From an uncultured bacterium (GTDB lineage Bacteria; Actinomycetota; Actinomycetes; S36-B12; CAIYMF01), in contig CAIYMF010000256.1 of assembly GCA_903927265.1 (NCBI GenBank), positions 1 through 57,739 of the forward strand: 57,739 bases of DNA, read 5' to 3'. Below the pieces are notes generated by a model, which saw only the letters and a list, made by a program, of their open reading frames with translations, was not told the origin of the DNA and did no database searches. Made by a program: the position numbers and the translations under genes. Position 1 is the first letter of the stretch; each line of letters starts with the position of its first letter. Of this stretch, positions 3,806 to 32,869 are shown one piece after another.

Positions 3806-4609
3806 ATGCCCTACACCTTGGCGCACCCGGCACTGATTGTGCCGCTGCGTCGGTGGATCGTGCTCGGTGCTGCTGCTGCCGGTGCGATGACACCCGACTT
3901 TGGTTACTACCTGCCGCTTGCTGTGGTGAACCGGGTGCCGTATCCGTCGGCCGCTTTCACTCATTCGTTGCTCGGTGCGGTGACCTTCGACACGATCGTC
4001 GGCCTCGTTGCGTACATCATCTGGCGATGGCCAGTACGCACGGAATTGTTGGGGTCCCTTCCCACGCCGTGGTCAACCCAGACTCTTGCTCGCACGGCTG
4101 TGGTGTTGCCCAGTCGTACGCCGGCGATGCGCGCTGTGCTGTTAGTGGTGTCGGTCATGGTGGGCGCCATCACCCACGTGCTCCTCGACATCGTGACTCA
4201 TGAGAGAGCCGGAACGCCGGGCTTCATCGCTGACGAGAACGTACTGGGTCTTCCGGTCTCAGCATTCCTGCAACGCGGACTGTCGATTGTGGGTCTTGGT
4301 CTGCTCGCGTGGTGGATAGCGCGAGAAATTCACGACATTGCGCCCCTCTCGGGTTTGTACCCGACGCGCCGGATGACGCTCTACATCGGAAGCGTCATCG
4401 TTGCGGCGCTTCTTGGCGCCGGGCTCTTCGTGCGCGACTACCCGCCGATCACTGAGGGCAATGCGGTGATTGCAGTTCTGCTCGGTTTCACGGCCGGCGG
4501 CGCCTTCGCGCTGGTTGCGGTGTCAGTTGCGCTCGTTATTCATCATCGTCATCGAGTCGCGCGAGCCATGTCGCAAGGCGTTCGATCGGAACCTCGAAGT
4601 CGGGGTTGA
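3806..4609 (+). CDS. DUF4184 family membrane protein
   Basis: This 267-residue protein opens with MPYTLAHPALIVPLRRW, the hallmark of DUF4184, followed by GAMTPDFGYYLPL and AFTHSLLGAV. The conserved Pro/Asp/His pattern resembles membrane-bound metal-dependent hydrolases of the YdjM type. About six hydrophobic segments are visible, with ITHVLLDIVTH in the middle. The frame is open further upstream into the preceding gene, but the family N-terminus and the one-base gap after the preceding stop fix the start at 3806. Its last 74 bases overlap the convergent DUF6104 gene on the other strand. Its function is unknown. Confidence 0.85.
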   Translation: MPYTLAHPALIVPLRRWIVLGAAAAGAMTPDFGYYLPLAVVNRVPYPSAAFTHSLLGAVTFDTIVGLVAYIIWRWPVRTELLGSLPTPWSTQTLARTAVVLPSRTPAMRAVLLVVSVMVGAITHVLLDIVTHERAGTPGFIADENVLGLPVSAFLQRGLSIVGLGLLAWWIAREIHDIAPLSGLYPTRRMTLYIGSVIVAALLGAGLFVRDYPPITEGNAVIAVLLGFTAGGAFALVAVSVALVIHHRHRVARAMSQGVRSEPRSRG

Positions 4610-4712
4610 TGTCGACGAACTCGCGTAAGCGATCGGCGAGCCATTCCAGGCTCACTTCCTCTTCGCCCCGACGTGCGGCGAGCTCCTCAATACCTCTGTC
4701 AGTGAAGTACAT
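4536..4712 (-). CDS. DUF6104 family small protein
   Basis: This is a 58-residue acidic protein beginning MYFTDRGIEELAARRGEEEV and continuing with EWLADRLREFVDINPDFEVP and ERLATWLARLDDD. I recognise this as the small actinobacterial DUF6104 family, which is habitually encoded next to kgd. It starts 5 bp after the kgd stop, with an AGGAAC Shine-Dalgarno-like sequence, so it belongs to the kgd transcript. It is predicted to be helical and soluble, and its function is unknown; the context suggests a partner or accessory of Kgd, which is inference. The final 74 bp lie antisense inside the end of the DUF4184 gene. Confidence 0.88.
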   Translation of the reverse strand: MYFTDRGIEELAARRGEEEVSLEWLADRLREFVDINPDFEVPIERLATWLARLDDDDE

Positions 4713-4717
4713 GGTTC

Positions 4718-7700
4718 CTACTCAAATGCTGTGTTGATGAGGAATGACTGTTCTTCCTCATGACGGTGATGACTGCCGACAGCCGGCGACGACGAGGCGG
4801 GTCGCGTGACACCCGCAATCGTGCGACCAATGAGCGAAGGCACGTTCATGGCAATGAACGACCATGCGCCCATGTTGGCCGGCTCTTCTTGTACCCACTT
4901 GAGTTCGGCGTGGGCGAACGGCGCCAGTGACTCGGGGAGCGTGCGCTGAGGCAACGGGTACAAGCGCTCCATGCGCACGATCGCGGTGGTGGTGTCGGCG
5001 CGCTTCGTGCGCTCGGCGAGCAGGTCGTAGTACACCTTGCCGCTGCAGAGCAGAACGCGCTTAACCTGCGCCGGGTCGACTGATTCGTCACCGATGACCG
5101 CACGGAAGTGACCGTGAGTGAATTCAGAAGTGCTCGACGTTGCCGCTTTGAGTCGCAGCATGGACTTCGGCGTGAACACGATCAGCGGGCGAGTGAGGGC
5201 TGAGTGCACCTGCCACCTCAGGAGGTGGAACATCGATGCGGGGGTCGTGGGTGTCGCGACCGTCATATTGTCTTGCGCGCACATTTGCAGGAAACGCTCG
5301 ATGCGCGCCGATGAGTGATCGGGACCCTGGCCTTCAAAACCGTGCGGCAGAAGCAAGACGAGGGCCGAACGTTGCGCCCACTTCTGCTCACCGCTGCTGA
5401 TGAACTCGTCGATGATGGTTTGTGCGCCATCGGCGAAGTCACCAAATTGCGCTTCCCACATGACGAGCGCATCGGGGCGTGCCACTGAATACCCGTACTC
5501 GAAGCCCATCGCCGCGAACTCGCTGAGAGGCGAGTCGTAGACATACAACTTGCTATCGCCTTCGTAGCACTGCTTGAGCGGCTTGTACTGCCAACCCGTC
5601 GCAGCATCGACGATCACCGCGTGGCGGTGTCCGAACGTTCCGCGGCGGCTGTCTTGACCTGCAAGTCTCACCGAGTGACCCTCGGTGAGCAGTGAACCGA
5701 TGGCAAGCATTTCGCCCATTCCCCAGTCGATTTGATCGGTCTCGACCATTTCGGCACGACGTGCGAGTTGGGGGAGTAGGCGGGGGTGTGCGGTGAAGCC
5801 TTCGGGCAATTCGAGTTGGCTGCGCACGACCCGGTCGACGACGTCACGAGAAATCGACGTATCGACGTCGTACGCCGGAGTTTGCGGCTCGAGTGTTTGC
5901 TGACCTTCGCGTACGACCTGACTGTCGGAAGGGTCGTGCGATTCGTCGGCCGCGCGCGTTTCTTGGAACACGCGCTCAAGTTGGTCGCGGTAATCGCGAA
6001 GTGCAGCCTCGGCCTCTTCGACCGAAATGTCGCCGCGGCCAATCAGACTCTCGGTGTAGATCTTGCGCACCGATCGCTTCTGATCGATGAGTTGGTACAT
6101 GAGTGGCTGGGTGAGTGACGGATCGTCGGCTTCGTTGTGACCACGACGTCGGTAGCAGACAAGGTCGATCGCCACGTCCTTGTGGAACTGCTGCCGGAAC
6201 TCGAACGCGAGTTGAGCGACATACACGCACGCCTCGGGATCGTCACCATTGACGTGGAATACCGGTGCTTGAATGATGCGCGCGGGATCGCTGCAGTAGG
6301 TGGTGCTGCGGCTATAGCGCGGCGACGTCGTAAAGCCCACCTGATTGTTGACGATGACGTGAATCGTGCCGCCCGTGCGGTAGCCACGTAGTTGCGACAA
6401 CTGCAGGGTTTCGACAACCACACCCTGACCGGCAAATGCTGCATCACCGTGCATGAGCACGGGAAGTACGGGGAATGTTTCGCGCGGAAGTAGATCCTGT
6501 CGCGCCCGCACGATTCCTTCGAGCACGGGGTTGACGGCTTCAAGGTGCGAGGGGTTTGCGGCGAGATACACGTCGACACCGGTTCCGTGCACGCTCGTGA
6601 AACGGCCGCTGGTTCCGAGGTGATACTTCACATCTCCTGAACCGTGCACCGACTCTTCGCCGAAGTTGCCCTCGAACTCCATGAAGATCTGGCCGTACGA
6701 CTTGCCAGCGATGTTGGCCAGCACATTGAGTCGTCCACGGTGCGGCATTCCGATGCACACTTCGTTCAGTTCGGCGTCGGCCGCTCCCGTCAGTACTGCG
6801 TCGAGCAACGGAATCGCTGACTCTCCACCTTCGAGTGAGAAGCGCTTCTGGCCCACGTACTTGGTTTGCAGGAAGGTTTCGAACGCCTCAGCAGCGTTGA
6901 GGGTGCGCAGGATGCGCAACTGTTCCTCGCGCGCTGGCTTGGTGTGCGGCACCTCAAGTCGCTCCTGAAGCCATTCGCGCTGCTCAGGATCTTGAATGTG
7001 CATAAATTCAACTGCGACGGTGCGGCAGTACGAGTTGCGAAGCACGCCCAGAATGTCGCGCAGTTTCATCCAGCGTTGACCGCCGAAGCCACCGGTGGCG
7101 AATTCGCGGTCGAGGTCCCAGAGGGTGAGCCCGTGCGACTCGATCTCAAGATCAGGGTGTGTGCGCTGAAGGTATTCGAGCGGGTCGATATCGGCCATCA
7201 GGTGGCCGCGCACCCGGTACGCGTGAATGAGTTCCTGCACGCGTGCGGTCTTGCTCAGTTCATCGTCGTGGGTGGTGGCGATGTCGTGCGCCCACTGAAT
7301 CGGCTTATACGGAATGCGCAGCGAGGCGAAGATCTCCTCGTAGAAGCCGTCGGCTCCGAGTAATAGTTCATGCATGTGCCGTAGGAAGTCGCCGCTCTGC
7401 GCACCCTGAATGATGCGGTGGTCGTACGTCGACGTCAGGGTGAGGATCTTGCTGATGCCCTGCTTGGCAATGGTTTCGGGCGAGGCTCCCTGCCATTCGG
7501 CGGGGTACTCGAGGGCTCCCACGCCGATGATGGCGCCCTGCCCTGCCATCAAGCGTGGCACTGAGTGCACGGTGCCGATGGTGCCAGGGTTCGTGAGGCT
7601 GATGGTGGTGCCGGCGAAGTCGTCGACGACGAGCTTGCCGCCGCGTGCCTTGCGTACGAGGTCGTCGTACATTGCCCAGAACGAGGCGAAATCCAGTGAT

Positions 7701-8335
7701 TGTGCGCCCTTGATACTCGGAACCAGCAACTGCCGGGTTCCGTCGTCCTTGGGAAGGTCGATCGCGAGACCGAGGTTGACCTGCTCGTGCTTCAACACGG
7801 CCGGCTTTCCATTGATCTCGCTGTACGACCAGTTCATGCCGGGTTGGTTGGCCAACGCCTTCACCAACGCATAGGCGATGAAGTGCGTGAAACTCACCTT
7901 GCCGCCGCGAGCGCGCGCCAGGTGGTTGTTGACCACGATGCGGTTGTCGATCAGCAGTTTCGCCGGAACGGCACGCACGCTCGTTGCGATCGGCACTGAC
8001 AGCGAAGCTTCCATATTGGTGACGACTCGTGCTGCTGGGCCTTTGAGCTTGACCGCTTCGGTCTGCTCAACCGGCGTGTGCGACACCGAAGGAGTCGGGG
8101 GCACCACGAAGGGGACGGGGGTGGGAATGGCTGCCGGTGTCTGTTCACGTGCGGCCGGTGCTGGCGGTGGCGTGGGAGTGATCGCGGCCGCATGCTCGGT
8201 GGGCTGGTAGTCGGCGAAGAAGTCCCACCACGCATGGTCAACGGAGTTTCGGTCAGCCACGTACTGCTGGTAGATCTCGTCTACTAGCCAAAGATTGGTT
8301 CCGAAGGTGCTCGGAAGTGATGACTCCGACGGCAC
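4718..8335 (-). CDS. kgd: multifunctional 2-oxoglutarate decarboxylase/dehydrogenase E1-E2 (Kgd/OdhA)
   Basis: About 1205 residues, the length of actinobacterial Kgd/OdhA. In one chain it combines a dihydrolipoamide succinyltransferase-like catalytic domain with thiamine-diphosphate-dependent E1, and decarboxylates 2-oxoglutarate in the TCA cycle. Order of parts: an N-terminal helix ([18 protein letters not shown]); a Pro/Ala-rich linker (about 45-95); an E2-like domain (about 105-345) with [16 protein letters not shown], whose histidine is near 306; and an E1 domain (about 365-1205) with [27 protein letters not shown] and [12 protein letters not shown]. No lipoyl domain is present, as usual for this fusion. 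The GTG at 8335 has GAGAGG upstream; an in-frame GTG at 8350 is the alternative. The DUF6104 gene follows. Confidence 0.96.
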
Positions 8336-8418
8336 GTGGCTGCCTCTCACTCGCGGGATGACTGTGAGGCAAGCCTACCCATCGCTGGAGCCACAGCATC
8401 CGGGCGCGGCCAGCTGGG

Positions 8419-9585
8419 TTACAGGCCGAGTCCACGACTGATCACTAACTGCTGAATGCTCGTACTGCCCTCGACAACCCGCAGCATGCGCAGATGGCGA
8501 AGAACGCGTTCAACGGGACCTTCGCGCAGTAAACCCATGCCGCCGAGAGTCTGCAGTGCGCGATCGGCCACCGTGTAGGCCTTCTCGGTGCAGTAGTACT
8601 TGACGATCGAGGCATCGAGCATGGGATTGTCTCCGCGGTCGACTTCCCAGGCGAGGTGGTAGACCAGCCAGCGCATGGCCTCAATGTCGGCCTTGCTGTC
8701 GGCAAGAGGGAACGACACCGACTGGAATTTGCCGATCGGTTTACCAAATGCCGTGCGCGACTGTGCGTGCGCGATGGCCACGTCAAGGCAGTATTCAGCC
8801 AGTCCGAGTGCCTGAGCCCCAATGTGAGCGCGCCCGGAATTGAGGAATTCCATCGCCGTGAAGAAGCCGGTGCCGACTTCGCCGATGACATGATCGTCAG
8901 CGACCCAGGCGTCGTCGAAGAAGAGTTCGGCGGGATGTGAGTCGGCGTGGGTGTATTGAACGCTGCCGCGTCGAAACTGATCGCTCGGAACAAGGAACGC
9001 GGTGATTCCACCTGCGGCGCGCTTTTCAGCGTCGGTCACAGCGAAGACAATCGCGACATCGGCGTGCTCGGCGTTCGTGATGTAGTGCTTGTGACCGTTG
9101 ATGCGCCATCCGTCACCGTCCTTGACGGCTGTCGTGCGAATCGCTTGGGCGTCGGATCCGGCCTCGGGTTCGGTGAGAGCGAAACACATCGACTTCTCGG
9201 CTGACACCAGCGCAGGAAGCCAGGCGTCGCGCACGTGGGTCGGCAGTCGCAGCAGTAGTGGGCTCGGACCGGCGGGATTCGGAGGTGAGATCGCAGCGAG
9301 TGCAAGCCGCATTCCGGTGCGCGCGGCATCCTCGACGAGCAGGGCCGTGCCCAGCGTCGATAACCCCTGACCCCCGACTTCCTCGGGCAGGTAGGCGGCG
9401 TAGAAGCCCTCTTGTGCACTGCGAAGTCGAATGCGTTGGGCAGCGTCGTGGATGACCTCGCGGTCAGGATGCTCAGACCAGTACTCGGTCTGCAGACTCT
9501 CATCGAGTGGGCGCACTTCGCGTTCAAGGAAGGCAGCGAATGAAGCACGCAGGGCGGTGAGTTCCTCCGGGATGCTGAAGTCCAT
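8419..9585 (-). CDS. acyl-CoA dehydrogenase
   Basis: This 388-residue FAD-dependent acyl-CoA dehydrogenase introduces an alpha,beta double bond into an acyl-CoA. Visible elements are the N-terminal FSIPEELTALRASFAAFLE helix, FALTEPEAGSDAQAIRTTAV with NGHKHYITNAEHAD in the mid-domain, and the C-terminal LGGMGLLREGPVERVLR with VVEGSTSIQQLVISRG. The chosen start gives the family length. The frame stays open upstream to 9708, but that extension is made of two copies of a 21-bp direct repeat and looks non-coding. The CAGACT hexamer 6 nt before the ATG could serve as a leaderless-type -10. Chain-length specificity cannot be deduced. Confidence 0.92.
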   Translation of the reverse strand: MDFSIPEELTALRASFAAFLEREVRPLDESLQTEYWSEHPDREVIHDAAQRIRLRSAQEGFYAAYLPEEVGGQGLSTLGTALLVEDAARTGMRLALAAISPPNPAGPSPLLLRLPTHVRDAWLPALVSAEKSMCFALTEPEAGSDAQAIRTTAVKDGDGWRINGHKHYITNAEHADVAIVFAVTDAEKRAAGGITAFLVPSDQFRRGSVQYTHADSHPAELFFDDAWVADDHVIGEVGTGFFTAMEFLNSGRAHIGAQALGLAEYCLDVAIAHAQSRTAFGKPIGKFQSVSFPLADSKADIEAMRWLVYHLAWEVDRGDNPMLDASIVKYYCTEKAYTVADRALQTLGGMGLLREGPVERVLRHLRMLRVVEGSTSIQQLVISRGLGL

Positions 9586-9657
9586 GAGTTCAGTCTGCCC
9601 GAGTGAGGGCTTCGGAGCCATGGTGGCGCCTTCACCGCGGTCAGGTCTTGCGGCCTC

Positions 9658-9708
9658 GTCTCGGGCTTCTTTTGTCACACGAAGACCGTCTCGGGCTTCT
9701 TTGGTCAC
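9658..9708. repeat. pair of 21-bp direct repeats upstream of the acyl-CoA dehydrogenase gene
   Basis: Two 21-bp units beginning GTCTCGGGCTTCTTT lie at 9658-9678 and 9688-9708. They differ at one base and start 30 bp apart, about three helical turns. They fall in the intergenic segment upstream of the gene on the minus strand. The spacing suits a pair of protein-binding sites. Confidence 0.6.
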
Positions 9709-9717
9709 TAGGTGACC
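9703..9717. promoter_or_regulatory. 15-bp inverted repeat, candidate operator
   Basis: GGTCAC-TAG-GTGACC is a perfect 6-3-6 inverted repeat that shares its left arm with the end of the second 21-bp direct repeat. Size and symmetry fit a dimeric repressor site (TetR- or GntR-like) controlling the acyl-CoA dehydrogenase gene. No regulator gene is adjacent, so the binder is unknown. Confidence 0.4.
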
Positions 9718-9750
9718 AGGAGTTGGGAAGGGGAGGTGCGATCCATCAGA

Positions 9751-10815
9751 TTACCCGGCGGTGCCGGCCAAACCACCAAGCGTCGCGGCAACCAAGTCAC
9801 CGAGCGTCGGCAGGTGATATCCACCCTCCTGTACCGCAACGATTGGTCGATCGAGTGCCGCGATCAGGGCACCGGCTGAGCGGTAACCGGCGGCGGTGAC
9901 TCGCAGCGGACTCTCCGGATCGTCGGCCGCGGCATCGACTCCGAGTGAGACGACGACAGCATCAGGGTTGAAGGAGGCGGTTGTCTCGACCATGCGGGCA
10001 AGCGCTGCCAGCCACTCCTCGTCGCCGGTGCCTTCGGCGAGCGGAATGTTGAGAGTGGCGGCGCGGCCTTCCTCGATGCCGATTTCGTCGGCAAAGCCAG
10101 CGTGGTGGGGAAACCACCCGGCAGCAGGATCGATATGCAGTGACGTGACAAACACGTCGTTTCGCGAGTAGAAGATCGACTGAGTGCCATTGCCATGGTG
10201 GGCGTCGATGTCAATCACGGCGACACGAGCAGCGCCTCGATCACGTAATGACTGCGCAGCGATGGCAGCGTTGTTCAAATAGCAGCTGCCGCCGAATACG
10301 GTTCGAGTGACGTGGTGACCGGGAGGCCGGGTCAATGCGTACGCCCCAGCCGCCCCGGCCGACACAAGATCAACGGCCGTCAAGGTGCAATCAACTGCGG
10401 CGCGTGTTGCTTCCCACGTGCCGGGCCCGATCAGCGTCATCGTGTCGTAGCAGTAGATGCCTGCGCGTGCGTGCGGTGCCGTGGGTGTGCGTACCGGAAG
10501 CCCTTCAGTCAGGCCCGGTAGGGGAAACAAATACGGCACCACTCGGTTGGCACCGTCGCGGCTGGGATATCCCGCGGCGTCCCACGACGACCACGCCGTG
10601 CGGAGATAGTCGACGAGAGAGGGATCATGCACCGCAGTGAGTGCGGCGTCGTCATGAGGCGTCGCATCAACGATGGAATGGCCGGCGCCTTCCAGTGCCG
10701 AAAGAATCACGGTAGCTCGCTCGGCCACCTCGGTTCCAGGCGTGTTGGTACCGAGCCAAATCTCGCCGAGCGGCTCGTGGAGTAAACAGTCTGCGCTAGT
10801 GACAACGGGAAACAT
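9751..10815 (-). CDS. histone deacetylase family protein (acetylpolyamine/acetyl-lysine amidohydrolase type)
   Basis: This is a 354-residue member of the arginase/deacetylase superfamily, zinc hydrolases that remove acetyl groups from lysines or polyamines. The paired histidines appear in RPPGHHVTR. The zinc ligands appear in VIDIDAHHGNGTQSIFY, and DAVVVSLGVDAAADDPESPL corresponds to the second aspartate region. A tyrosine-loop-like QEGGYHL sits near the end. The ATG at 10815 begins at the family N-terminus (FPVVTSADCLLHEP) and leaves a 16-bp gap after the sugar-porter stop, so both genes are probably on one transcript. The alternative GTG at 10857 would overlap that gene. The substrate is unknown. 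Confidence 0.9.
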   Translation of the reverse strand: MFPVVTSADCLLHEPLGEIWLGTNTPGTEVAERATVILSALEGAGHSIVDATPHDDAALTAVHDPSLVDYLRTAWSSWDAAGYPSRDGANRVVPYLFPLPGLTEGLPVRTPTAPHARAGIYCYDTMTLIGPGTWEATRAAVDCTLTAVDLVSAGAAGAYALTRPPGHHVTRTVFGGSCYLNNAAIAAQSLRDRGAARVAVIDIDAHHGNGTQSIFYSRNDVFVTSLHIDPAAGWFPHHAGFADEIGIEEGRAATLNIPLAEGTGDEEWLAALARMVETTASFNPDAVVVSLGVDAAADDPESPLRVTAAGYRSAGALIAALDRPIVAVQEGGYHLPTLGDLVAATLGGLAGTAG

Positions 10816-10831
10816 CAGTGTGGCGCGACCC

Positions 10832-12379
10832 TCACGCCTCGACTCCTTCGAGTACACCCATGTCCTCGAGTTCGATGCCCTTGGTTTCCTTGACGTACTT
10901 CTTGACGTAGAAGAACGACAACAGAGCGAACAGGGTGAACAGTCCGTAGGCGAGCCCCAGTGAGATTTGTACGAGTCCGGGGAACGTCATCGACACGATG
11001 AAGTTGGCGATCCAGTTGGCCATGACCGCGATGCTGAGGGCGGCAGCGCGCAGGCGGTTCGGGAACATCTCGCCCAGCATCACCCACAGAACCGGTCCCC
11101 ATGTCGCTGCAAAGAATGCGACGAAGGCGTTGAGTGAGAGAACCGCGATGAGACCCTGCGTCGAGTTAAGAATTGGCGTGTTCAAATCGGCGGAGATGTC
11201 GCAACCGGCAATCTTTGCAGGATCGTCGATGATCGCTTGAGTGCACTTGGGTGCCGTCTGGAAAATGAACGTCAAGATTCCCAGAGTGACGAACATGCCG
11301 ATCGAACCGATGAGCAGTAGTGGACGGCGACCGATGCGGTCAACGAATCCGATCGCGACAAGAGTGAACACGACGTTTACCGCGCTGATGATGGTGGACG
11401 TCAGGAATGCTTTGCTCTCGTCGAATCCGACGGCAGCCCAGATCAGGTTCGAGTAGTAGAACACCGCGTTGATTCCGACGAACTGTTGCAAGACCGCCAA
11501 GATGATGCCGATCCACACGATCGGCTTGAGGCCCATCGCGGCGCCCTTGAGGTCGCGCATTCCCGACTGCACTTCCCCTTCGAGGGAGTGCTTGATCGAG
11601 GCGATCTTGGGAGCGACGTCGTTGACATAGATCTGCGAGAGAACGCTCGTAGCCTGCTCGGACTTGTCCTTGGCCACGAGGTAGCGCGGCGACTCGGGCA
11701 GAGTCAGCGACAAAACCCAGTAAATCAAGGCGGGAATCACCATGCAGATGAACATCCACTGCCATGCCTCAAGACCCAAGCCGATGACGTTGTTGGCCTC
11801 TTGTGGAGGAACGTCGGGGTTGATGACGGGTGCGGTGATGGTGTCGGACGTGAAGTTCAGGATGATCTGGTTTACCAGCTGGGTCGAGAAGATTCCGATC
11901 ACGATGGCCAGTTGGAAGAGTGAGGACAGCCGACCACGAAGGTGCGCCGGAGCAATTTCCGAGATGTACATCGGTGAGATCACGGCGGCCAAACCAATGG
12001 CCACGCCACCCACCACGCGCCAGAACATGAAGTCGTACACGCTGATCGGAAACGCCGTGCCGATGCCGGCGATCAAGAACAGGATGGCTGCGACGACCAT
12101 GACCTTCTTGCGGCCGTAACGGTCTGCCAGGCGACCACCGATGAATGCGCCGACGGCCGAGCCAAGGAGCGCGATTGCGACCACGAAGCCCTGGTAGAAG
12201 CCGTTGGCAATCTGGAATTGGTAAAACACGGCCTTGTTTGCACCATTGATGACGGAACTGTCGTAGCCGAAGAGGAAGCCGCCGAGGGCCGCGATCATCG
12301 ATACGGCCACGACCCTTCCGGTGTGGACGGGCTCGACCTCGACTGGACCGGTCTCTCCTGCGGACACGGGACCCTGCAT
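10832..12379 (-). CDS. MFS sugar porter (glucose/xylose:H+ symporter type)
   Basis: This 515-residue integral membrane transporter of the sugar-porter family has 12 predicted transmembrane helices. Signatures are GGFLFGYDSSVINGA in helix 1, GGRLADRYGRKK in loop 2-3, RVVGGVAIGLAAVISPMYISE with PAHLRGRL, the family motif PESPRYLVAK after helix 6, and FVDRIGRRPLL in loop 8-9. A GGAGG lies 5 nt before the ATG at 12379, which is preferred over the GTG at 12382. The histone-deacetylase-like gene follows. Specific sugars cannot be assigned, and a polyol is possible. Confidence 0.93.
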   Translation of the reverse strand: MQGPVSAGETGPVEVEPVHTGRVVAVSMIAALGGFLFGYDSSVINGANKAVFYQFQIANGFYQGFVVAIALLGSAVGAFIGGRLADRYGRKKVMVVAAILFLIAGIGTAFPISVYDFMFWRVVGGVAIGLAAVISPMYISEIAPAHLRGRLSSLFQLAIVIGIFSTQLVNQIILNFTSDTITAPVINPDVPPQEANNVIGLGLEAWQWMFICMVIPALIYWVLSLTLPESPRYLVAKDKSEQATSVLSQIYVNDVAPKIASIKHSLEGEVQSGMRDLKGAAMGLKPIVWIGIILAVLQQFVGINAVFYYSNLIWAAVGFDESKAFLTSTIISAVNVVFTLVAIGFVDRIGRRPLLLIGSIGMFVTLGILTFIFQTAPKCTQAIIDDPAKIAGCDISADLNTPILNSTQGLIAVLSLNAFVAFFAATWGPVLWVMLGEMFPNRLRAAALSIAVMANWIANFIVSMTFPGLVQISLGLAYGLFTLFALLSFFYVKKYVKETKGIELEDMGVLEGVEA

Positions 12380-30947: not shown

Positions 30948-31007
30948 AACGCTCGGAATGCTTGACTTCAGATGTTACGGTTCACTCGACCCATATGAGG
31001 AGTAATC

Positions 31008-31163
31008 ATGGCTGACCTTGACCCGATCGAATCCGAACTTCCGTCAGACGAACTGTCAAACGACGAACTGAGTGACGTTGCCGGCGGCGCGGTGGTTTTC
31101 GGCGGAACAACGGGTGGCAAACTCCCCGGAACCATGAGTGGCACGACGGGCGGCACTTTCTGA
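31008..31163 (+). CDS. putative double-glycine leader peptide 1 (bacteriocin/RiPP-like precursor)
   Basis: This is a 51-residue peptide. Residues 1-27 form an acidic leader ending DELSNDELSDVAGG, which matches the LSxxELxxIxGG consensus of leaders cleaved by C39 peptidases (Val replaces Ile). The predicted core is residues 28-51, with 8 Gly and 6 Thr, one Lys and no cysteine. Glycines at 33, 37, 41, 45 and 49 form a continuous GxxxG series. GAGGAG precedes the ATG by 5-7 nt. A second gene with the same 27-residue leader layout lies 58 bp downstream. No maturase, transporter or immunity gene is recognisable nearby, so the product is unknown and antimicrobial activity is only inferred. Confidence 0.7.
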   Translation: MADLDPIESELPSDELSNDELSDVAGGAVVFGGTTGGKLPGTMSGTTGGTF

Positions 31164-31221
31164 GCGTCCGAACGCGTGACATCACATCGTGCGGTGCACG
31201 TCTTATTTCTTAGGAGTTGTC

Positions 31222-31386
31222 ATGGCCGACCACGGCCCGATTGAGCCCGAGCTTGTTTCGGACGAGCTCTCTGGAGTCGAACTCGATGACGTCGTAGGCG
31301 GAATCGCAGGTGGACCAGGAGTCACCGGTACCACGCTGGACCGCGCCGCTGCAGGTGCTGACAACGTCGCCCCTGGATGGCACTAG
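31222..31386 (+). CDS. putative double-glycine leader peptide 2 (bacteriocin/RiPP-like precursor)
   Basis: This is a 54-residue peptide whose first 27 residues end DELSGVELDDVVGG. They are identical to the neighbouring leader at 19 of 27 positions, with the double glycine at the same place. The core (28-54) is unrelated: it is Ala/Gly-rich, cysteine-free, and ends NVAPGWH. The ribosome site and start context (AGGAGT, two variable bases, then TCATGGC) are shared with the first gene, indicating duplication followed by core divergence. A further GG at 30-31 could be an alternative cleavage point. The open frame begins slightly upstream at 31189, but the RBS fixes the start at 31222. Confidence 0.7.
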   Translation: MADHGPIEPELVSDELSGVELDDVVGGIAGGPGVTGTTLDRAAAGADNVAPGWH

Positions 31387-31961: not shown

Positions 31962-32032
31962 GGGATACTGCCTATCACAGGGAATACACGGCGGCGATCG
32001 GACGCCTGCACCCCTCAACGGAAAGGCGAATC

Positions 32033-32869
32033 GTGCAGTCGTGCGCAGTGGTCGGCTCAGGGCGCATGGGCGCGGGTATCGCGCACGCACTCTTGCTCAC
32101 GGGAGCATCGGTGACAGTCATCGAGGCAACACAAGAACTGGGTGAAGCGGGGCGCGAGCGGGTGGCAGCGCTGGTCAACGACAGCGCCGTCCGCGAAACT
32201 CTCACGCAGGCCGTTAGTGAAGTTCTGGCTCGACTGACGTGCGGCGTCGGGGCTCAGGCAGCCGCCGGAAGCGACCTCGTTGTTGAGGCTGTTCCCGAAG
32301 ACCCCGCGTTGAAGGTGTCGGTCCTTGCCGATATCGAAGCCGTTGTCGATCAGACCTGCATGATCGCCACGAACACAAGTTCCATTTCGGTGACCGAATT
32401 GGCGGCAGCTCTCGATCGTCCCGAACGGTTCATCGGTTTGCATTTCTTCAATCCTGTGCCGGCAAGTGCGTTGGTTGAAATTGTGGTGGGCGTTCAGACA
32501 TCCAATGCGTCGGTCGATGCCGCGCGGGCCGTTGTTGACTCCATGGGCAAGACAGCGATCGTCGTGCGTGATTCGCCAGGATTCGCCAGTAGTCGATTGG
32601 GTGTGCTGCTTGGCCTTGAGGCCATTCGCATGGTGGAAGAAGGGGTCGCCAGTCCGGCCGATATTGATGCCGCCATGACTCTGGGCTACAAGCATCCGAT
32701 GGGTCCGCTGCGATTGACCGATCTCGTCGGGCTCGACGTGCGCCTCGGAGTGGCCGAGTACTTGGCCGCAGTGCTCGGCGATCGCTTCTCCCCACCTCAA
32801 TTGATGCGTGACATGGTGGCTCGTGGCGAGCTTGGGAAGAAGTCAGGCCGAGGTTTTTACGACTGGTGA
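32033..32869 (+). CDS. 3-hydroxyacyl-CoA (3-hydroxybutyryl-CoA) dehydrogenase
   Basis: This 278-residue enzyme oxidises 3-hydroxyacyl-CoA to 3-ketoacyl-CoA with NAD, or runs in reverse in butyrate and PHB metabolism. The Rossmann motif AVVGSGRMGAGIAHALLLTG is at the N-terminus. NTSSISVTELA and GLHFFNPVPASALVEIV carry the catalytic His/Glu region, and the C-terminal domain ends GELGKKSGRGFYDW. The GTG start has GAAAGG nearby; the frame upstream is not coding. Its length matches stand-alone HBD/PaaH enzymes without a crotonase domain. With the acyl-CoA ligase and FadH/OYE reductase it suggests a local fatty or aromatic acid degradation set. Confidence 0.92.
   Translation: MQSCAVVGSGRMGAGIAHALLLTGASVTVIEATQELGEAGRERVAALVNDSAVRETLTQAVSEVLARLTCGVGAQAAAGSDLVVEAVPEDPALKVSVLADIEAVVDQTCMIATNTSSISVTELAAALDRPERFIGLHFFNPVPASALVEIVVGVQTSNASVDAARAVVDSMGKTAIVVRDSPGFASSRLGVLLGLEAIRMVEEGVASPADIDAAMTLGYKHPMGPLRLTDLVGLDVRLGVAEYLAAVLGDRFSPPQLMRDMVARGELGKKSGRGFYDW

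What the first reader, a model, noticed from the sequence alone, without database searches (positions are those of the whole stretch)
31008..31386. Tandem genes for two double-glycine leader peptides with no local maturation machinery
Both peptides (51 and 54 residues) have 27-residue acidic leaders ending in GG and identical at 19 of 27 positions. Each matches the known C39-peptidase leader consensus LSxxELxxIxGG with Val for Ile. The cores are different and have no cysteine. That excludes lanthionine and sactipeptide chemistry and leaves unmodified bacteriocin, Ser/Thr-based modification or another use. Shared start context and RBS show duplication, with the leader conserved and the core free to vary, as in RiPP and two-peptide bacteriocin loci. 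They lie between acyl-CoA metabolism genes, and no C39 transporter, LanM, YcaO or radical-SAM gene is present, so processing in trans is required if it happens. I know of no described family that fits.
Basis: partly seen in the sequence, partly recalled or inferred. Interest (0 to 1): 0.82.

Follow-up and report, generated by a model that had tools for sequence, protein, structure and literature searches.

The report
Secreted-peptide genes with distant exporter
Two tiny neighbouring genes encode peptides with a conserved export tag ending in Gly-Gly and freely varying cargo; the machine that should cut and export them is intact but sits elsewhere in the genome, so this is a new, genus-restricted set of a known kind of secreted peptide, not an orphan system.

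Summary
P1 (31008-31163, 51 aa) and P2 (31222-31386, 54 aa) have 27-residue acidic Gly-Gly leaders, 19/27 identical, and unrelated cysteine-free cores. The "missing machinery" is explained: the same genome has exactly one C39 peptidase, in an intact NHLP-type exporter on contig C99 (peptidase ABC + second ABC + HlyD), syntenic in a sister species (94% identical). The genome holds two more short-leader peptides (tandem, C203) and one NHLP-like precursor (C102), all away from the exporter. In the sister species the same locus carries one peptide with the leader kept and a different core; DNA similarity stops at the GG codons. The leader carries the three hydrophobic residues (-12, -7, -4) that C39 peptidases read, and changes in it are mostly synonymous. 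Best reading: dispersed GG peptides cut and exported in trans by one shared NHLP-type exporter. It is a new, genus-restricted leader subfamily that no library model covers at threshold. Two-peptide bacteriocin is not supported (no immunity gene or local exporter; GxxxG only in P1; other short-leader cores only 12-13 aa). Function of the cores (signal, matrix, antimicrobial) is unproven.

The parts
31008..31088 (+). P1 leader (MADLDPIESELPSDELSNDELSDVAGG); Leu-12, Leu-7, Val-4, Gly-2, Gly-1
31089..31163 (+). P1 core AVVFGGTTGGKLPGTMSGTTGGTF (24 aa, no Cys; last 20 residues read as five tetrapeptides GGTT GGKL PGTM SGTT GGTF) and stop
   Evidence: Gly every fourth residue five times; 986 of 100000 shuffles of the core reach this
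31222..31302 (+). P2 leader (MADHGPIEPELVSDELSGVELDDVVGG)
31303..31386 (+). P2 core IAGGPGVTGTTLDRAAAGADNVAPGWH (27 aa, no Cys) and stop
30963..30981 (+). upstream element TGACTTCAGATGTTACGGT, first copy (possible promoter or operator; part of the duplicated unit)
   Evidence: the only two matches among the sequences scanned, 214 bp apart
31177..31195 (+). upstream element TGACATCACATCGTGCGGT, second copy
30997..31002 (+). ribosome-binding site of P1 (GAGGAG)
31212..31216 (+). ribosome-binding site of P2 (AGGAG)

Best explanation
P1 and P2 are precursors of small secreted peptides. The acidic leader is the docking and export tag; the single NHLP-type peptidase-ABC exporter on contig C99, with its second ABC subunit and HlyD adaptor, binds the leader helix through Leu-12, Leu-7 and Val-4, cuts after Gly-Gly and exports the core. 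The exporter acts in trans for a dispersed pool: P1, P2, two peptides on C203 and an NHLP-leader peptide on C102. Between related species the leader is kept while the core is replaced or lost. Shown: sequence conservation, the single intact exporter, the dispersed pool, core turnover. Inferred: cleavage, export and that this exporter is the partner. Least certain: what the cores do; because they are only about 5-27 residues and often rich in Gly and Thr/Ser, an extracellular signal or small matrix/surface peptide, little or not modified, is more likely than a pore-forming bacteriocin.
For: One C39 match in the genome, E 7.8e-34, in an exporter of the NHLP type (TIGR03796 776 bits; partner TIGR03797-like 537 bits; HlyD-like third gene), with Gln, Cys, His and Asp of the C39 site present and invariant among ten relatives and full-length similarity to the solved bacteriocin transporter 4ry2. 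Syntenic and 94% identical in the sister species. Four short leaders in the genome, all with L-12, L-7, V-4, GG, the positions that fit the hydrophobic groove in the LahT C39-leader structure (PMC6363468). Sister species: same locus, one peptide, leader kept, core not homologous; alignment ends at the GG codons. Leader pN/pS 0.25-0.45. NHLP-like peptides with the same habit, leaders 73-98% identical and tiny varied cores, away from the exporter. Cys-free short GG peptides lie near homologous exporters in Streptomyces and in one genome of the same order.
Against: The exporter and these peptides are not adjacent in any genome seen. G013, in the same family, has a related full-length exporter but none of these leaders. 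The leader lineage is confined to one genus (2 of 395 genomes of the class at E 1e-3), so co-occurrence rests on two genomes. The sister core lies on DNA that matches the stretch after the P2 stop, so that copy may be decaying. The exporter scores below the curated cut-offs of the NHLP models. No expression data.
Confidence: 0.78

Rival explanations
1. The cores are unmodified class II bacteriocins; P1 and P2 act as a two-peptide pair.
For: Tandem duplication, GG leaders; Pfam Bacteriocin_IIc matches P1 at E 9.2e-5, below its cut-off; Gly repeated every fourth residue in P1.
Against: No immunity gene or local exporter beside them; P2 has no GxxxG; cores are short and Gly/Thr-rich rather than amphipathic; the sister has one peptide only with a 13-aa core; C203 cores are 12-13 aa.
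Confidence: 0.12
2. The cores are modified on Ser/Thr or side-chain carboxylates (graspetide-like or glycosylated) by an enzyme elsewhere before export.
For: One C203 peptide matches the ATP-grasp target model TIGR04497 at E 7e-4 and the sister peptide at 0.02, both below cut-off; Thr-rich cores; a group-1 glycosyltransferase gene lies near the C203 pair.
Against: The matches cover mainly the generic leader end; no maturase among the annotated neighbours of P1/P2, the C102 peptide or the exporter. A genome-wide search for ATP-grasp, LanM, YcaO or radical-SAM maturases was not made.
Confidence: 0.2
3. P1 and P2 are decaying leftovers of a former GG-peptide family; only the NHLP peptide is a live exporter client.
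For: The sister's core lies on DNA matching sequence after the P2 stop; narrow distribution.
Against: Leaders keep the recognition residues in five copies and change mainly at synonymous sites; starts, ribosome sites and stops intact; two loci of two genes each.
Confidence: 0.12

Closest known systems
NHLP/N11P precursors with the TIGR03794/03796/03797 export cassette (Haft, Basu and Mitchell 2010, PMC2887384)
   Same: Leader ends in acidic ELxx[VI]xGG; hypervariable core begins right after GG; same three-gene exporter type is in this genome
   Different: Leader here is 27-30 residues with no nitrile hydratase or Nif11 domain; precursors are not next to the exporter; no heterocyclase or LanM seen nearby
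EbfG1-4 and PteB of Synechococcus elongatus (PMC4997328)
   Same: Several small GG proteins served by a C39 transporter, with a non-antibiotic role
   Different: EbfG mature proteins are 6-7 kDa, far longer; role here unknown; no sequence kinship of cores is claimed
Streptomyces short GG peptides beside an NHLP-type exporter (L074, L088, L089)
   Same: Short acidic leader (EISDADLDNVSGG), Cys-free Gly/Val/Thr-rich core, same exporter family
   Different: Near the exporter; core about 48-53 aa and alike between species
Streptococcal GG peptides exported by PCATs such as the Rtg system (PMC7595303, PMC7018657)
   Same: Short GG peptides for communication or competition, PCAT-dependent
   Different: Different exporter lineage; no regulator or receptor partner found here

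Membership tests
Double-glycine (C39/PCAT) secretion substrates | Leader ends in Gly-Gly (or Gly-Ala/Ser) with hydrophobic residues at -12, -7, -4 | tested here: met
   P1, P2, both C203 peptides and the sister peptide; positions from PMC6363468
Double-glycine (C39/PCAT) secretion substrates | C39 exporter in the same genome with catalytic residues | tested here: met
Double-glycine (C39/PCAT) secretion substrates | Cleavage after GG and export by that exporter | not testable with these tools
   needs in vitro cleavage or secretome mass spectrometry
NHLP (proteusin-type) precursors, TIGR03793 | Nitrile-hydratase-like leader of about 77 positions | tested here: not met
   P1/P2 give no TIGR03793 match; leader 27 aa. 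A C102 peptide does match weakly (24-25 bits, cut-off 50.9)
Class IIb two-peptide bacteriocins | Two peptides with GxxxG motifs plus adjacent immunity gene and exporter | tested here: not met
   GxxxG only in P1; no immunity gene or exporter beside them
Lanthipeptides and sactipeptides | Cysteine in the core | tested here: not met
   No Cys in either core
Graspetides (TIGR04497 targets) | Model match over cut-off and an ATP-grasp ligase | tested here: inconclusive
   Only sub-threshold matches for a C203 and the sister peptide; no ligase among scanned neighbours; genome-wide search not made
CCRG-2 family RiPP (NF033456) | Model match over cut-off | tested here: not met
   P1 17.1 bits, cut-off 24

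The most novel reading that the evidence does not exclude
A genus-specific peptide signalling or surface system in which one NHLP-type exporter secretes a scattered set of very short, unmodified, fast-changing peptides with two different leader types (short acidic and NHLP-like), the cores being swapped or rebuilt right at the Gly-Gly codons between sister species.
Probability: 0.3. Interest if true: 0.6.

Novelty: new member of a known kind. Interest (0 to 1): 0.36.

Why it matters
It shows that GG-peptide genes without local machinery can be paired with an exporter by a whole-genome search, and gives a small, clean system (one exporter, at least five unlinked candidate clients, a sister species with a changed core) for testing how a C39 exporter reads short and long leaders alike and how cores turn over at the cleavage site.

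Tried and rejected
The leader profile in eight named genomes found nothing (no positive control). G001's other pattern hits lie inside long ORFs. The flavin reductase of G004 (66% identical) sits in another context, so it does not serve as an empty site. No sigma-70 promoter match; one terminator-like site lies inside P1 and one between the genes, of low meaning. The upstream element shared by P1 and P2 is absent upstream of the C203, C102 and exporter genes, so no shared regulon was found. No structure prediction was run: peptides of this length would not be informative.

Full report
Observation. P1 (31008-31163) and P2 (31222-31386) are short ORFs with good ribosome sites between an AMP-binding acyl-CoA ligase-like gene and a flavin reductase on the other strand. 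Their 27-residue leaders share 19 positions; the cores do not align convincingly and lack cysteine. The repeat unit is 214 bp, in register from about 45 bp before the ATG to the GG codons.

Missing machinery. The genome (3.67 Mb, 353 contigs, 98.4% complete) has exactly one C39 peptidase match. It is the first domain of a 737-aa exporter on contig C99, scoring 776 bits with the NHLP exporter model TIGR03796 (cut-off 853), followed by a 953-aa ABC protein related to TIGR03797 and preceded by a HlyD-like protein. Residues Q, C, H and D of the peptidase are invariant in an alignment of ten homologues. The contig is syntenic with the sister species at 87-90% DNA identity, and the exporter is 94% identical there, so it is not a contaminant.

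Dispersed precursors. A profile of the leaders finds four places in the genome: P1, P2 and a second tandem pair on C203, with cores FGSSTLKIKGEA and VGAHGRHTVGEAG. A motif pattern that does not use the profile finds the same four short ORFs. An NHLP-model search finds a weaker precursor on C102 in this genome with core SGCAQ, and three in the sister species with cores SGCARP, DPNAGCTGGADRMLYPTGP and HSGNFGTPM. None lies near the exporter; the C102 peptide lies beside complex-I-type genes. C203 was not matched in the sister species, so its membership of this organism rests on the assembly and on leader likeness.

Leader kept, core changed. In the sister species (G001, C8) the same locus holds one peptide, MADQDPIDPELASDELSQCELDDVAGG|FPKSDTRVTGSGG. 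Its leader DNA aligns with both copies, ending at the GG codons; its core region aligns instead with the stretch just after the P2 stop codon. So one species has either gained or lost core sequence, and the sister copy may be a remnant. In the leaders most changes per site are synonymous (pN/pS 0.25-0.45; only 81 bp, so rough).

Distribution. The leader lineage is confined to this genus in the held genomes (2 of 395 of the class), one weaker relative in the order aside (G056, E 1.1e-4). Within the family of 17 genomes a full-length C39 exporter occurs in G000, G001 and G013; leaders occur in the first two.

Mechanism. The three hydrophobic leader positions that sit in the groove of the C39 domain in the LahT structure (Val-4, Leu-7, Leu-12; PMC6363468) are present in every short leader, and the equivalent positions are hydrophobic in the C102 NHLP-like leader (by eye). 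The likely path is: docking at the C99 exporter, cut after GG, export of the core with the HlyD adaptor. Cleavage and pairing are inferred. Function of the cores is open. Lengths of 5-27 residues, Gly and Thr/Ser richness, and absence of an immunity gene speak against pore-forming bacteriocins and for small extracellular peptides such as signals or matrix parts; the P1 core is largely five Gly-containing tetrapeptides (about 1% of shuffles reach the same Gly spacing).

Comparison. Haft et al. (PMC2887384) described the exporter and precursor families, the acidic leader end shared with classical class II bacteriocins, and the hypervariable core. Wang et al. (PMC3140520) found 290 diverse GG precursors in cyanobacteria. 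EbfG/PteB (PMC4997328) shows GG peptides with a biofilm role. In Streptomyces and one member of the same order, Cys-free short GG peptides sit near homologous exporters. The present set is therefore a new member of a known kind, with a leader that no library model covers at threshold.

Limits. Two genomes carry the leader; the genome is a draft; maturases were not searched genome-wide; nothing is known of expression; the organism could not be named with the tools at hand.

Noticed in passing
G000 C203 (L007:9774-10092, - strand): Second tandem pair of short GG peptides (MTEKEAPRDEEMPSEAAELSDAELDAVIGG|VGAHGRHTVGEAG and MTKKPVASEDAAPQPSDELSEDELNDVIGG|FGSSTLKIKGEA), near a cupin gene, a group-1 glycosyltransferase gene and two proteins without Pfam match.
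   Followed up: partly
G000 C102 (L186:8270-8518) and G001 C5, C2, C16 (L188, L189, L187): NHLP-like precursors with tiny variable cores (SGCAQ, SGCARP, DPNAGCTGGADRMLYPTGP, HSGNFGTPM), one beside NADH dehydrogenase/complex-I-type genes, all away from the exporter.
   Followed up: partly
L057 (G118 C86) 4400-12300: A genome of the same order with an NHLP-type exporter flanked by seven Cys-free GG peptides, two with NHLP leaders over the model cut-off and others with short leaders.
   Followed up: partly
L074:8760, L088:8717, L089:8690 (Streptomyces): Short-leader GG peptides with conserved repetitive Cys-free cores (ALNALGSVTG...GTVEGVTGLNTAPVTGL) a little over 1 kb before an NHLP-type exporter; a fibril-chaperone model matches weakly (E 0.007).
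   Followed up: no
L003:3172-5886 (G000 C99): An oligopeptide-type importer (SBP_bac_5 and permease) lies a few kb from the exporter; could be ordinary catabolism or peptide re-uptake.
   Followed up: no
window 32005-32783 versus L049: The 3-hydroxyacyl-CoA dehydrogenase gene next to the flavin reductase is mostly missing in the sister species (alignment gap).
   Followed up: no
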